Positions 1 to 10,605 of a stretch of 64,000 bases of DNA are shown here, piece by piece. The notes under the pieces were generated by a model that searched no databases, was not told the DNA's origin, and worked only from the letters and a program-made list of their open reading frames with translations. How positions within the stretch are numbered: the first letter of the stretch is position 1; every line of letters starts with the position of its first letter. The position numbers and the translations under genes are program-made. Source of the DNA: Saksenaea vasiformis B4078 (Eukaryota > Mucoromycota > Mucoromycetes > Mucorales > Saksenaeaceae); NCBI GenBank assembly GCA_000697055.1, contig JNDT01002298.1, positions 1 through 64,000 of the forward strand, read 5' to 3'.

Positions 1-442
1 TAAGATCTTCACTGGCATCTTCCTTCGTTTCGCCCTTCTTCACATCATCATTGTCACCTTCGGAACGCTTATGTGGGTGACGGTGGCGCGCCCATGGTGG
101 TATGCGGCGCTTTGTAAGATCTTCACTGGCACCTTCCTTCGTTTCGTCTTTCTTCACATCATCATTGTCACCTTCGGAACGCTTGTGGGGCAAGTGCTTC
201 CACGGTCGCCAGTGGCGTTTTGTGATATCTTCACTTGTATCCTTCTCATCGCCGGTGGATGGACCTTGTTTGGGTAGTTTGCTCACGGGGTCAGCGAGGC
301 CGGACTTTGAGCCAACATCTCCCGCAGCGTCGGTGGCCTTGTCAACCAAACCTTCTCCCTTATCAGCGATCCCAAGGTCAACAGCTTGAGCGCTGGCGAT
401 GAGGCAGACAACAGCAGAAAGTGTGAGGAAATTGATCTTCAT
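1..442 (-). CDS. Secreted precursor with Lys-Arg-delimited tandem repeats (Kex2-processed peptide type), partial
   Basis: The ATG at 442 (minus) opens a frame that runs off the left edge after 147 codons with no stop. Residues 1-20 form a signal peptide (MKINFLTLSAVVCLIASAQA). A 50-residue pro-region follows, then repeats bounded by Lys-Arg pairs. Basic, Trp/His/Pro-rich peptides (HWRPWKHLPH, then RIPPWARHRHPH) alternate with acidic spacers that begin SEGDNDDVKK and end in SEDLT before the next KR. Repeat units are 36-38 codons; the nucleotide repeat is visible at 1-114 and 115-222. This layout is known from fungal precursors cleaved by the Golgi protease Kex2, such as alpha-factor-like pheromones and repeat-containing secreted peptides. 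I do not recognise the family and infer no activity. A TATA box lies about 40 nt upstream. Confidence 0.8.
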   Translation of the reverse strand, partial: MKINFLTLSAVVCLIASAQAVDLGIADKGEGLVDKATDAAGDVGSKSGLADPVSKLPKQGPSTGDEKDTSEDITKRHWRPWKHLPHKRSEGDNDDVKKDETKEGASEDLTKRRIPPWARHRHPHKRSEGDNDDVKKGETKEDASEDL

Positions 443-4297: not shown

Positions 4298-5423
4298 GCG
4301 ATGGAGATTAGGTACCGGTAAGACAGCAAAGAAAAGAATCGGAGGTTTATTCTATGCCATTCCTTGTAGAATGAAATGCTTGGTGCATTTTAAAATCCGA
4401 ACGTGCTCGCAGCATTTGCAACAACCATGCCTTATTGTATATTGAATCCCTCTCCTTTTCATTCTTCCTACACTTTAGTATTGTTTGCTCTTCTTGAACA
4501 GGTCCTTTGCTACAGAGTCGCGTACTTTACAGCATTCCTTTTTTCCTTCTCATACAAATGCTTTTTTCATGCTCCAGTTTGTTGAGGTCGGACTACATGC
4601 AAAGAACTGCTATCTTCATTTATGGCAGGGTGTCCTTGAGTGTCAAGCTCCATTGCCTCCTCATATCGTCCGTAGATATCTCTGATGCTGTTCCAATTTA
4701 CTTCGCTGTTTTGCCTAAGCCGGAAGCAGCATTCCTGCAGATCCAACAGCTGGTCTAGTATCTTAAATTCCTCGCAAGTCCTAACTACGAAATAATCGGT
4801 TCAGAGGGCACAAACTACCCGACTATCATGGACACGGACATTGATGGATGAGCGTCTCTGGTCTGTGTACATGTTCCTTGTTGCACGGAATGGCACGATA
4901 AGTTTTTTTTTGCTTCCGATCAGGCACACAAACAGAGATTGTGTTTGTTTCATAGCTTGTAATATCCACAGTGTGCTTTTTATGAAGTCATGCTTCGTTT
5001 ATTTAACCATATTGGTTTGTATTGCTTCCTTGCAGAGAAACAGTAGTTATCGCTGACAAGATGACGGGAAGGTGGCAAAGACGAAGGAAGAAAACGATGA
5101 TCTCGGGGCGACCTGATCATCACGAGCTTTTTGAACACCGAATTTCTTTGAGGTGAGGCTGGCAGTATGCCTGGACCAATTTGAGCGAATGACAGCTCTA
5201 GAACAAAGTGCGGACCTTCCGCGCTGGCGAATAAAATATGATAAAACAAAGTGCGGATGTTAAAAGTTTGTTGACTGTAACAATCGGTCCTTTGGGGGGG
5301 GGGGAGCCCTACCATATAAACTAACAAAACGGGGACAAGCAAATGCTGTTGGTTCCTCATAGAAATGGCTTATATATAGCGTCCACCTTTTGACTCTAAT
5401 CTGTAAATTTTTTTATAATTATA
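4298..5423. other. Intergenic stretch, no gene seen
   Basis: Only short frames without domain resemblance. It contains an 11-nt G run at 5294-5304, just before the TATA box of the next gene. Confidence 0.5.
5371..5378 (+). promoter_or_regulatory. TATA box upstream of the DUF6729 gene
   Basis: TATATATA, 46 nt before the ATG at 5424. It supports that ATG as the original start of the mobile-element gene. Confidence 0.4.
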
Positions 5424-6545
5424 ATGGATTGCAATCAAAGCCAGTCATCTCAGCAAGATCCAACACCTTCGGCTTCAACATCTGGTCTCACTATGTGTAC
5501 GTATTGCTGTTGAACTCTCGTGAATATACATTAATGCTAACGGTTAACAGCCGGCTCGTCTGATGAAGTCAATAGAATGGAATTGGCTTCCATGGAAGAA
5601 ACGCAATCAAATCCAGAGAGACTTCCTCCAAGCGAAGACAACAGTAATGACGAGGCGTCAGATGGATCGCTACACGTTCAGTACCTGGCTACCTTGCGAG
5701 ATAGACTAAAGCAGGAAATGGAACAATCACCCAAAATTATTCCCAAATGCTATCAGAATCAGAGTTATTGGGTGACCACCTGGTCCGTATTTTGCTCTCC
5801 GTGGCCAAACAAAATTGGACCCTTCGCCACTTTACTATCCTCGCGTATTTGTGTGGCTAGTCCATCTGCTCATTAAGGATTTAAAGTGCCCTCAATGCTC
5901 TGGAGGTTTTCGCGTACGTGGCTGGGCAGACAGACCAATTGCAAGAAAGTTTTCGATGTGCACGACAATTTCTATATCATGTCGTATAGATACCAATGCA
6001 GACGGTGCAGTCGATCATACTCGGGACATGACAATGAAATTATTAAAAATCTACCGCTCCCCTTATCCGAAGAATTTCCTGCGATACTTTCTCACCGCGG
6101 AGCAGTATCTCGAGAGTTGACGAATATGATGCGTAGCTGCTTCCATTCCGGAATAGGACCTGGTCCATTTTCTCGAACCATCGGTGAGCATCATCACCCG
6201 TTACGATATATGTTGCTGATATTTGTTAGCTGGTCTTCTAACGTGTATGTCGTGCAGTACGCATCTCTTTATTGGACCTTGTACTACTCGATACGACATT
6301 TTCCCTGTTATGGCTTAGCTAACGTCGTTTCTCACGTAATTCCAAACGAATTGTGACAGAAGAACAGCGGGGAGTCTGGATGGAGTTTCTAATATAATGA
6401 GGATAGCAAATCTAGTGTTTTCCTCGTTTGGAGATAAAAACGGTTACGACAGCACATTTCCAAGTGCCAAGTGTTTAACGAATATGTACAATAATTGCGT
6501 GGAATTGCGTTCGATGGACCATTATCCTGACTTGAATAAAACGTG
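5424..6545 (+). pseudogene. DUF6729-like gene, frameshifted
   Basis: ATG at 5424; a clean 54-nt intron (5497-5550, GTACGT...CAG, branch GCTAAC) joins the first two coding blocks. The conserved core runs from a PRVFVW motif through CPQC, an IMSYRYQC segment, CRRCSRSY and an FPAILSHR block to GIGPGPFSRTI. That order, with paired CxxC motifs, matches the fungal DUF6729 domain, whose genes are usually repeated and look mobile; its biochemical role is unknown to me. The frame shifts near 5774 (one extra base) and returns near 5950 (one missing base). A 45-47 nt intron ending CAG at about 6268 fits. Downstream, a GDKNGYDSTFPSA block near 6440 still resembles the family, then stops accumulate. The copy is probably dead. 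The Fanzor gene follows within 300 bp on the same strand. Confidence 0.6.
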
Positions 6546-6831
6546 ACCTAAACATGTCGGATCTATGGTGCGACAGATTGAACATCTACGGTGTGATAGA
6601 TCCTTTTCTTAGGAGCCAGATCAAATTTCGTGGCTTGGAGATCAATAAGGTTTAGGGGTTTTGCTGTGGCACAAGCTATGGCTCCAAAAGATGCCGGTCG
6701 GATTAGATATAGCTCTTAAGAGATCTGGTGATAGATCAACAACAGTGATTTCTTTGTATTGTGAACTATAAGATAGCGACGACCACCACATTTCAGTCCT
6801 CCATCTCTTACTTTGTCGTTTTCGCCTTTAT

Positions 6832-9800
6832 CATGGAGGAGGAGGTTCAGGAACCACCTCGCCGTAGGAGACGATATGGATATCAGCATAGCCCTCTATC
6901 CGACCTGCCTGGTCGTGATTATTCGTTTGTGCGTAAACTAAAGCTGTCCAATTTCCTGCAAGAGGACTATAAGCACCTGAGGGCATGTGTATCTTGTTTT
7001 TCTCTGGACAAAAGCTAAATTCATTGATGAAGATTGCTTTTCGTGCACTTGCGGAAGAATACGCCGCTGCTTGCCAGTGTGCAATGTTTCTCGTTAACCT
7101 ACACATTCGCCGTTGGCTCGAGGGCCAGATAGAACTTTTCCCTCCGATTTCCAAGGAATATTTCTTCACTGCTGCTTTCAAGATGGTATTACAGCGAGAT
7201 CCCGGCACCAATGTCAGAGTAGCTTTTGTATGATGTTACTATAATTGATCAATCAGCAAGCTGAAATTCTTTGTCTTCTGTATACTTTGTAGTCAGCCTA
7301 TCGATGGTGCGTTGACCTGAGAGAAACTTTTGAGACCGTGTTTAATTTGTGCAGATTCGATCCACAAACATCAGAAGGTACATAAGAGGACTTACGCCTT
7401 TTAAGGATATTCATGTATTATTAGAAAACTATTCTCTCCCGACACTGACGCACGTCTTAAGAGACCTGGCTCCTTCGTTTGCAGGGAAAATAACTGCCAG
7501 TGAGCGCTTAATATCAAAGAGGCAAAAAGGCAGTTGTATATTTACGTTTTTTCGCCTTCGTAGACACCTTTGAACATGTCACGACAAATCTCCCAGTCTA
7601 CATGAGAAGAACATTTAAAGCATTCTTTCTTCGCCTTTTCGAACGGTATCCTCAAACCCAATACCACAATGTGAATGGCCTAGGTATTATATCTTATTCA
7701 TTTCCTCTACAGTAGCAAATGTGATATTTGTAATTCTAGCAACTCGCTGCACAAACGCAGTCTTGGCACAGAACAATTTCGACCATAACGCATGGCCAGC
7801 TTTTGGTACTGATGCGGTTGCAGAGTTCGAAGCATTCTATACGTAGGTTTTGTATGATTGTTAACCATTTCGTGATTGTGTATCACTAACTGCTCCATGT
7901 CTTATAGCGAGTTTCTGTGGACTTACACGGAAACCTTCGGAAACACGGACATTTCAGGCGATTTAAGCGATGAGCAGAAGGAAAGTTACTTCCCTCCATG
8001 CTACAATTTTCTTTCCAGCTGCTTAAACAATCGAACGAGTACGATGGAGAAGGCTGGTCGCTACTACCGTTAGCAAAAAATCAAATAGGTATGGTTGAAT
8101 GAGCGAAAGCCTCTACTTAGGTGTTATGGTCTAACATGCACGCTATAGGATATGTGCCGGTTTCCCACGCGATCCTATACTGGATTTTGCAAGGTGTTGC
8201 TGTGGACCTCCCGGACCATCTGTTCGTAAATGATTTACAAAAAAGTAAATGAAAATTAACTAGCCTTCCAAAAGCCTCCCCTACACAATCCCCGTGTTTT
8301 CGCCAGTGCGCACATCGGAGCGCAGTTTACCGTGAGCAGCTTTGGGAAGAGACTTTTTGTATAGACCGCGTCATGCCTAGGCGTTGGCGTTCGCAAGGTT
8401 TGCTTATAATCGATCCCATGTAAATGTTGATCTCATCATCCTTTGCTTAGGAGAAAACAATGAACAGCTTCCACAATTCGAGTTTGACTACGGTTTCAAA
8501 ACAGACGGCGTGATGGCTGCTGTTAGGTTCAAGTCTCGTAGGCCGAATCGAGGTATGGTTAATGTTTGCCACATTATGAAGCAACTAATGGGATAATCTG
8601 CGTCTCAGCTTCCTACCCTTCATCCAGAAGAGACTTCCAATTCTTGCCCCGAAATAGAGACATGTCTGTTGTCCAACGTGGTTTATACCACTTAAACAAG
8701 GAGCCCACAGGTTTCACTGCAGCACAGGACCTAGACCCCGGATTGACCCGCATAGTGGGGATTGACCCAGGTATGTCACCCGCTCTTGAAAAAATTCAGT
8801 GATAGCTATATATCATATAGGCATCCGATCCCTGGTAACTACTGTTGACACGGCGGATAACTTGCGTGATCGGCAAACAAGGCAGCACCATACGTTTACG
8901 GTCACGAATGATTATTACCAGTAATATAGCAAGATGACGTTCGTCATGGTGTGGTAACCATATCAATTTCCAGGAACAGCTCCAAATTCACCTGAGTCTC
9001 CAGATGGAGCGGAAGAACCGCTTAGCTGCGAATATGCAGCAGGTGTATGATCGTCTGGCGGAGCACCCAAGCACGCAGGCTTCGCTTTTAGGGTTTCAGA
9101 GCTATCTTTCGACGCAATTTGCGGAGAAAAATAGGTACTTTCTGAATATATATCGCTCGTATGTGTCCGTTCTAAAAGGATTTTGCTAGGACTCAGGAAT
9201 ACAAGCGTCATTATCGTCACAGAGAAAGACGCGGGCTCCTGGAATCTGCGAGAAAAATGACAATGGATGTTATTGCGGATCAAGCTGCAGGCTTCTATCC
9301 TAATACAAGTTTGGTAAGCCCATCAACGCATCATACGAGTGCATTAATCGTTATGCGAATAGCCACCTACCCAACCTGTACACAAAGAGAACAAGAGGCA
9401 CCGAAAACGAAGACGCCAGCAGCACCGGCGAAATCAGAGAGGCGGCCAACGGGACCAGCGCCGGGTTCTAATCGCTTACGGTGACGCGGACCTACATACG
9501 GCACGTATACGACGTATGGTCCTCTGCCAGTCAAGGCAAGCATTTGATTCATGTTGATATTGAATTTTTAATCGCTATTCTATGTAGACGTTTCGCAAAG
9601 TCTTGGCTCGGCGATGCCCGGTGATATGTGTAGATGAGTATAAGACCAGCAGGGTCTGTAGCGTCTGTCATAACGATACTATCCAGCTGCGTGATCCTAA
9701 CCTACGCATTTGCAACCACAAGTACGTATAATATGCGACCAAACACAACGAAAGTCTAAACATTAGAAATCGTTCATTAGAAAAAAGTACCTAAGCAAGC

Positions 9801-10187
9801 GCCCGAACAAGCGAAAGCGGCAATACTGTCTCGACGAAAACGATGAACTATTGCACGCTACATGCGAATGCCCTGACAGGCATCAACTAGGTACAGTGTT
9901 GGTACACTGTCTCTGGCTAACCGCCTTAATAGCTCCAACCGATTTTCGGAATATCGTCTATCCCATTCGGCTGTGTCCCCAGTGCGTATATGATAGACAA
10001 GGAGAGATGCCACCTTTGGTAAGTAATACGATTAGTAGGATATGCTAAGTCTCTAACATTACATTAGTTTTGGAACAGAGACGTTAATGCCGGCCGTAAC
10101 ATGCGTGAGATACTTGTCCGTTACATTGAATCCGGATGCCAGTTAACGTCTCGTCCCGAAGCGCTGTCTCGGACAGCTCAGCAGTGA
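6832..10187 (+). pseudogene. Fanzor (eukaryotic TnpB-like, RNA-guided OMEGA nuclease), multi-exon, with frameshifts
   Basis: Coding blocks spread over all three frames join through short introns. From ATG 6832: a basic N-terminus, a block ending TTNLPVYMRRTFKAFF (about 7580-7635), KTDGVMAAVRF (8500), RuvC-I motif RIVGIDPG (Asp at 8764-8766), a basic patch (9380-9465), VLIAYGDA, GPLPVK, then VDEYKTSRVCSVC (about 9630-9670, start of a zinc ribbon), a second CPQC, and the RuvC-III motif WNRDVNAGRNM (Asp at 10080-10082). The stop is at 10185-10187. Introns 8771-8820, a GC-AG intron at 9536-9587, and 10019-10067 keep phase exactly. Phase breaks occur near 8936, 9186 and 9501, and several upstream junctions also fail, so the copy is probably inactive unless the assembly has indels. 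Fanzors are programmable RNA-guided nucleases carried by eukaryotic transposons. Confidence 0.75.
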
Positions 10188-10605
10188 GGCACTGCTATCT
10201 GGTCACTCGTTTGACAAGTAAGTATTTGAGTTAGGTCTTACGAGTCACGCTTTGGAACGACGTGTTAATGAGAAATTAGGGCTATCCAGACACCGTCTGT
10301 GAGCCTGATGTGACACTTCCGCAATTTTAAGAATTCTTTGTGTACGAAAGCAGGACTGGTATATATCTAGGGACATCCTATGACATTTCTCCTCCTACAG
10401 GGTTTCCTGATACGATCGAAACCTGCATCAGCACTGTTTCTGTGTTCGAGCATTGTATTCATACATGGATTTGGACATCCACGAAGGTACAGGTATCCAA
10501 GCGGACTGCTTCTTGGATGTCCAATGTAAAAAAAAAAAATCAGGTTGAAAGGGGAAATTTATCTTTTTTGGCTGTTCCTTTTTCATTCTCCTCCATCGCG
10601 TAGCC
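10188..10605. other. Intergenic, MVD promoter region
   Basis: No gene seen. It holds a poly-A tract near 10530 and a pyrimidine-rich stretch just before the MVD start codon. Confidence 0.5.

What the first reader, a model, noticed from the sequence alone, without database searches (positions are those of the whole stretch)
6832..10187. Fanzor RNA-guided nuclease locus with recognisable RuvC and zinc-ribbon motifs
Motifs GIDPG, VDEYKTSRVCSVC and WNRDVNAGRNM appear in order on one strand, joined by phase-correct introns over the last third. Established: Fanzors are eukaryotic TnpB relatives guided by an adjacent omega RNA. Inference: this is a Fanzor copy in a Mucoromycota genome. If the frameshifts are assembly errors, it could be active.
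Basis: partly seen in the sequence, partly recalled or inferred. Interest (0 to 1): 0.8.

Follow-up and report, generated by a model that had tools for sequence, protein, structure and literature searches.

The report
Decayed Fanzor gene in fungal transposon
This stretch is one decayed copy of a fungal jumping gene that carries a relative of the RNA-guided DNA-cutting enzyme Fanzor, with a likely guide-RNA region at its edge; it belongs to a known kind, but to a branch and a carrier transposon that look little described.

Summary
In detail: 6833-10187 (+) reads as one intron-rich gene with GIDPG, E-x6-CxxC and NRDVNA in order. Its C-terminal part matches eight hypothetical Mucorales proteins (best E 3e-38); three also match its N-terminal part, in order. 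It shows both published Fanzor hallmarks but scores just below Pfam's ribbon cut-off (25.0 against 26.3). The gene is cargo of a larger transposon, 5157-10305, with short imperfect ends, 8-bp target duplications (exact in 5 of 8 copies checked, 7/8 in the window) and a DUF6729 remnant. Six other near-complete copies are 92-97% identical over the Fanzor part. Subfamily-diagnostic changes favour third codon positions (38 of 58) more than private changes do (87 of 198), so the protein was probably selected while the element spread. The window copy has frame lesions of its own. From the last codons to the right end lies a stretch conserved between families, a likely omega RNA; structural support is modest. 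The host is a Mucorales fungus near Apophysomyces. Cleavage and transposition are inferred. Ordinary in kind; moderately interesting.

The parts
5149..5156 (.). left copy of the 8-bp target site duplication (TGAGGTGA)
   Evidence: matches 10306-10313 at 7 of 8; five other copies have exact 8-bp duplications
5157..10305 (+). whole transposon copy, 5149 bp; about 0.4 kb shorter than other copies near 6527
   Evidence: edges shared by copies; exact left end by pattern
5157..5165 (+). left end GGCTGGCAG, imperfect inverted repeat of the right end (7 of 9)
5779..6588 (+). remnant of a DUF6729 protein; best profile match 5925-6194
   Evidence: PF20499 44.1 bits for the ORF 5877-6356, 42.0 bits for 5925-6194; tblastn with the L054 protein, which stops before the exonuclease domain
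6833..10187 (+). Fanzor1-type gene, many short introns, with frame lesions in this copy
8764..8766 (+). RuvC-I aspartate codon (GIDPG)
8771..8820 (+). intron GTATGT..ATATAG, the only phase-correct option found at this junction
9135..9189 (+). likely intron
9314..9362 (+). likely intron
9636..9638 (+). RuvC-II glutamate codon in the shifted position (E-x6-CxxC)
9657..9668 (+). first zinc-ribbon pair CSVC
9722..9780 (+). likely intron
9974..9985 (+). second pair CPQC, 82 residues after the first in the spliced reading
10019..10067 (+). likely intron GTAAGT..CATTAG
10080..10082 (+). RuvC-III aspartate codon (WNRDVNA)
10163..10305 (+). candidate omega RNA scaffold: hairpins 10163-10177, 10180-10196 (spans the stop codon), 10202-10215, terminal 10280-10305
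   Evidence: support modest
10297..10305 (-). right end (GGCTCACAG read inwards)
   Evidence: 20-base right-end pattern found 23 times in the genome within 3 mismatches, 12 exact, control 0
10306..10313 (.). right copy of the target duplication (TGATGTGA); predicted guide would start here
   Evidence: guide position is inference

Best explanation
A decayed copy of a DNA transposon with 8-bp target duplications that carries a Fanzor1 gene as cargo. Shown here: the gene, its hallmarks, the element's borders, its family of copies, a codon-position signal of past selection on the protein, and a conserved tail with some structural support. Inferred: in working copies the spliced Fanzor protein bound an omega RNA running from the last codons through the right end into flanking DNA, cut DNA matching that flank (for example the emptied site on the sister chromatid), and so promoted retention or copying of the element. 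A transposase acting in trans moved it; none was recognised in the ORFs tested. The window copy is probably silent.
For: Homologues and order; DPG and E-x6-CxxC; a six-row profile holding this C terminus matches SpuFz1 6e-7, PpFz1 8e-5, GtFz1 4e-4 (the other five rows are C362 and four more genes of this genome); third-position excess window against C362 [137,90,333], subfamily-diagnostic [12,8,38], p 5e-7; duplications; tail pairs; similarity past the stop ending 28-37 nt after it in 36 of 39 other scored relatives of the C431 tail (40 of 45 candidates scored).
Against: Pfam TNB score stays below its cut-off. Direct searches of solved structures with the window C terminus found nothing significant: one unrelated chain at E 0.29, SpuFz1 at E 2.4. 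The first homologue search found nothing at E<=1e-3. The structure model of a homologue was poor (pLDDT 42.8) and was not used. Private changes also exceed one third at third positions (87 of 198, p 0.0012), so the contrast is one of degree. The tail folds no better than shuffles overall (z -1.14 to 0.31); its number of pairs changed on both sides (2) is not above shuffles (238 of 500 as high); the stop-codon pair is broken in 4 of 15 tails; the terminal hairpin stands out in C362 and weakly in the window, not in C431 or C633. C416 and C476 show no duplication.
Confidence: 0.82

Rival explanations
1. The Fanzor gene is a passenger with no role in the element's spread; only the ends matter.
For: At least five of the other six near-complete copies carry frame differences of their own, besides those of the window; no transposase was recognised in the element's ORFs tested; the window's private changes look neutral ([6,3,6]).
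Against: Subfamily-diagnostic changes are 66% third-position (38 of 58), more than private ones (87 of 198, themselves above one third, p 0.0012; Fisher p 0.0045), while the DUF6729 part shows 16 of 37 (p 0.14 against one third; Fisher against Fanzor 0.037).
Confidence: 0.2
2. The conserved tail is only a transposase-binding end plus conserved coding sequence, not an RNA.
For: The terminal part doubles as inverted repeat; folding energies are unremarkable; only two pairs change on both sides, not more than in shuffles.
Against: Similarity past the stop covers the hairpins and then falls, 96.0% of cells pair against 24-42% when slid, no shuffle of 500 paired as well and one reached the covariation score (related sequences can exceed shuffles without structure).
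Confidence: 0.25
3. The carrier is a hAT, MuDR or other named superfamily element rather than an unassigned one.
For: 8-bp duplications are usual for hAT (recalled); Fanzor1 is reported with hAT transposases and with MuDR-like ends and 9-bp duplications in Mucor, Rhizopus and Phycomyces.
Against: No transposase recognised in 18 ORFs of the element scanned with Pfam; ends begin GGCT, not the CAGGG type recalled for hAT; duplications are 8, not 9 bp.
Confidence: 0.4

Closest known systems
Fanzor1 proteins SpuFz1, GtFz1, PpFz1 (PMC10432273, PMC11423790; passages seen)
   Same: DPG (as a Fanzor hallmark, PMC10711439), shifted glutamate, RD motif, zinc ribbon; SpuFz1 also sits in a transposon with an RNA from its right end
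   Different: No pairwise similarity at E<=1 in two searches; about 80 residues between the ribbon pairs; many introns
Mucoromycota Fanzor1 elements MCi-2, MCi-4, MCi-5, PBl-3, ROr-4 (PMC3627910; section 12 read, other passages seen)
   Same: Fanzor1 cargo in Mucoromycota DNA transposons; variable 5' and constant 3' regions in MCi-2
   Different: Those have 11-12, 9 or 6-bp duplications; DUF6729 is not named in the part read. Their sequences could not be compared, so identity with one of them is not excluded
Fanzor1 elements of Spodoptera ascovirus and relatives (PMC10711439, section 27 read)
   Same: RNA scaffold reaching the element end
   Different: There the short duplication is predicted to be part of the scaffold; here the 8 bp differ between copies, so they would be guide

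Membership tests
Fanzor1 | RuvC-I motif DPG | tested here: met
   GIDPG at 8764; hallmark from passages of PMC10711439
Fanzor1 | RuvC-II glutamate six residues before the first CxxC | tested here: met
   EYKTSRVCSVC; hallmark
Fanzor1 | D-X(125,275)-[TS][TS]-X-X-C4 zinc finger-X(5,50)-RD (motif recalled from the PMC3627910 abstract; not seen in a call) | tested here: met
   187 residues from D to TS, one doubtful junction included; 15 residues from CPQC to RD; ribbon pairs 82 apart
Fanzor1 | ribbon spacing CxxC-x(12,18)-CxxC-x(4,8)-D (a search pattern for Fanzor-like TnpBs in PMC10711439, not a definition of Fanzor1) | tested here: not met
   82 and 15 residues
Fanzor1 | passes the Pfam TNB cut-off (a label, not a definition) | tested here: not met
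   25.0 against 26.3 bits; homologues 24.7, 25.5, 19.8, 17.1 and four without a match, though the database's precomputed labels give PF07282 to two of the eight, P0005 and P0006
Fanzor1 | carried by a eukaryotic transposon | tested here: met
Fanzor1 | omega RNA from the right end | tested here: inconclusive
   conservation for it, structure modest; no expression data
Fanzor1 | RNA-guided DNA cleavage | not testable with these tools
   needs protein and RNA
hAT transposon | 8-bp duplication | tested here: met
   5 exact and one 7/8 of 8 copies checked
hAT transposon | hAT transposase and CAGGG-like ends (recalled) | tested here: inconclusive
   ends start GGCT; no transposase in 18 element ORFs of the window copy, but the window lacks about 0.4 kb and other copies were not scanned
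MuDR transposon | 9-bp duplication | tested here: not met
   8 bp

The most novel reading that the evidence does not exclude
A divergent Mucorales branch of Fanzor1, mostly below Pfam's cut-off and split in its zinc ribbon by a long insertion, rides a so far unassigned transposon whose target duplications have no fixed sequence. Its guide would then change entirely at each insertion, and selection would have kept the nuclease and its RNA while the companion DUF6729 gene was let go.
Probability: 0.3. Interest if true: 0.6.

Novelty: new member of a known kind. Interest (0 to 1): 0.42.

Why it matters
What Fanzors do for eukaryotic transposons is open. A family with many copies in one genome, a selection contrast between Fanzor and its neighbour gene, and variable target duplications offers a natural test of whether RNA-guided cutting helps an element persist. 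It also suggests that some Fanzors in Mucorales escape profile-based annotation.

Tried and rejected
A first homologue search with the whole hand-spliced protein found nothing at E<=1e-3; a search restricted to the C-terminal part of a slightly longer hand-spliced query succeeded. I first thought that the frame slip near 7977-7986 was shared by the family, which would have made the gene dead when it spread; the alignment showed that it is private to the window among seven copies, so that idea was dropped. Plavaka as partner: the transposase-like ORF behind DUF6729 on C133 scored only 12.8 bits against Transposase_21, and none of the 17 Plavaka matches is on one of the DUF6729 contigs; dropped. 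The structure model (pLDDT 42.8) was too poor for a fold search. No shared motif beside the duplications was evident by eye in the six copies that have one; not tested statistically. NCBIfam gave only weak Cas12 matches far below cut-off. Rfam gave one weak match, outside the element. The exon set was chosen from the window's own frames, so its 19 of 19 clean exons for the window are by construction and no evidence of intactness. Intron options were not compared with a chance control. Left out of the 15 tails: C277 and C639 (identical to the window's), C532 (altered right end), C314 (partly different) and the second Fanzor on C277.

Full report
Observation. The three motifs lie on the + strand in the order given. 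ATG is at 6833 and the stop at 10185-10187. At 17 of the 18 junctions between the 19 exon frames that I chose, at least one phase-correct GT-AG intron is possible, several with good consensus; the exception is 7977/7986. There was no chance control for this count. Joining 8602-10187 over seven introns of 49-87 nt gives one open frame. I chose among options, so the exact splice sites are not proven.

It is one protein. Against C362, about 71% identical over the gene, substitutions show three-base periodicity: in 12 of 59 overlapping 120-nt windows chi-square exceeded 9.2, and in all 12 the variable phase was the third position of the chosen frame. Over the chosen exons the counts by codon position are 137, 90 and 333 (p 1e-36 against one third). 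Searching 5.8 billion proteins with the C-terminal part gave 8 hits at E<=6e-8, all from Mucorales (Fennellomyces, Rhizopus microsporus, Lichtheimia ornata, Cunninghamella, Helicostylum) and all named hypothetical or uncharacterized, plus 4 insignificant hits. A first search with the whole protein had found none. Mapped back by tblastn, P0001 covers pieces of 7012-9704, P0003 of 7027-10172 and P0005 of 7006-10172, in order on +; the N-terminal pieces have E 3e-7, 0.019 and 0.008; the other five match between 8471 and 10190 only. So RuvC-I and RuvC-III are one gene.

Family. PMC10711439 (passages) gives two Fanzor hallmarks: DPG in RuvC-I and a glutamate six residues before the first CxxC. The window has both; of the 8 homologues 6 have DPG and all 8 have E-x6-C, one with CxxD in place of CxxC. 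A profile of six C termini (window, C362 and four other genes of this genome) finds SpuFz1 (6e-7), PpFz1 (8e-5), GtFz1 (4e-4) and many TnpB and Cas12 chains. With the window alone nothing significant was found (SpuFz1 at E 2.4). The profile of the eight homologues finds SpuFz1 first at 0.0087. The Pfam TNB model stays below its cut-off for the window (22.2 and 25.0 against 26.3) and for all 8 homologues in my scan, though the database's precomputed labels give PF07282 to P0005 and P0006. The reason may be the ribbon: 82 residues lie between its two CxxC pairs in the spliced reading (68 if a possible 42-nt intron at 9891-9932 is real).

The element. Six other near-complete copies, 92-97% identical over the Fanzor part, and many pieces exist (40 of 74 candidates scored); the left part is more divergent (80-96% over the longest matches). 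The copies share more than the finding: the left edge is 5157, the right edge 10305 (C532 differs over its last bases). Flanks form exact 8-bp duplications in C277, C475, C422, C639 and C527, 7 of 8 in the window, none in C416; C476, read by eye in the same output, shows none. Random 8-mers reach 7 or 8 matches in 348 of 20000 trials. The ends match at 7 of the first 9 bases. The right end is the better conserved: 12 exact hits and one with one mismatch among 23 within three mismatches, control 0, against 4 hits for a longer left-end pattern (lengths differ, so this is only indicative). Left ends vary even where the duplication is exact. The window copy lacks about 0.4 kb near 6527.

The companion gene. 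The ORF 5877-6356 matches DUF6729 (44.1 bits). In the two other loci read (L054, L055) DUF6729 is followed by a 3'-5' exonuclease domain; here the similarity stops before it and the Fanzor gene follows.

Selection and decay. Changes that separate C475 and C422 from the other five copies fall 12, 8, 38 on codon positions 1-3 (p 5e-7); private changes 63, 48, 87, also above one third (p 0.0012); Fisher p 0.0045 between the two. The DUF6729 part gives 10, 11, 16 (p 0.14; Fisher against Fanzor 0.037); it compares the same two copies with ten others, its frames are approximate and counts small. The reading: the protein was kept while the element spread, and constraint relaxed in single copies afterwards. 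In the window, a frame slip between 7977 and 7986, another near 9500 and a length difference in 8292-8399 are not shared by the other six near-complete copies, one of which (C527) has a larger deletion in the second place. The second slip means that the 9514-9600 junction of my spliced frame is probably not the true one. At least five of the other six copies (all but C475, which I did not examine further) differ in frame in places of their own.

The right-end RNA. I compared 15 tails: 10 of the window's family, C362, C431 and three of a further family. Four helices were counted: 96.0% of cells paired, 24-42% when partners are slid. Two pairs changed on both sides; one of them involves the stop codon and is unpaired in 4 of the 15. 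No shuffle of 500 paired as well and one reached the covariation score, but 238 reached the number of doubly changed pairs and all 500 the number of pair types. Folding energies are ordinary. The last 32 nt fold better than mononucleotide shuffles clearly in C362 (0 of 1000 as good), weakly in the window (41), not in C431 (359) or C633 (643). Between families, 24 to 28 of the 31-32 aligned bases after the stop are identical, 18 to 21 of 24-25 at the end, with a looser, gapped middle. Of 40 scored relatives of the C431 tail (45 candidates), 39 besides itself, 36 lose similarity 28-37 nt past the stop. This is what an omega RNA overlapping the stop would give, as reported for some other Fanzors (PMC10432273, passages), but it is not proof.

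Mechanism. Inferred: the RNA runs past 10305, so its guide is the right flank, beginning with the variable 8-bp duplication. [quoted passage not shown] that cannot hold here if the scaffold is fixed. A nuclease so guided would recognise the emptied donor site and could favour the element's retention. No transposase was recognised in the 18 ORFs of the element that I scanned.

Host and novelty. PMC3627910 (section 12) already describes Fanzor1 elements in Mucor, Rhizopus and Phycomyces with 9, 11-12 and 6-bp duplications. Searches of the open-licence library for DUF6729 and for Fanzor with Mucoromycota found no paper, Fanzor with Mucorales one, Fanzor with transposon and fungi 22 (listing of 20 seen). 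I therefore call it a new member of a known kind.

Noticed in passing
whole genome (G000): At least 137 matches to the TNB zinc ribbon in 38.7 Mb (150 of 388 candidates scored), and 40 scored matches to a second Fanzor tail: a large Fanzor/TnpB-like load, though some ribbon matches may be other zinc proteins.
   Followed up: partly
L054, L055: DUF6729 joined to a DNA_pol_A_exo1 3'-5' exonuclease, possibly a mobile gene of its own.
   Followed up: partly
L056, L063 (C133): Behind a DUF6729 copy with the same left end lie a Tc1-like transposase (HTH_Tnp_Tc3_2), probably nested, and a decayed tnp2-like ORF (12.8 bits, below cut-off).
   Followed up: partly
C89, C128, C334, C505, C542 (L057, L058): A right-end-like motif three mismatches away sits in a repeat; the two stretches read (of five) show no Fanzor C terminus; possibly ghost right ends.
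   Followed up: no
L040 (C277): A second, different Fanzor C terminus lies some 700 bases upstream of the window-family copy on the same contig.
   Followed up: no
window 10471-10524: Inverted repeat, 16-nt arms, 94% complementary, just upstream of the decarboxylase gene.
   Followed up: no
window 1-241: Also found once elsewhere (C544, two pieces of 87% and 100%).
   Followed up: no
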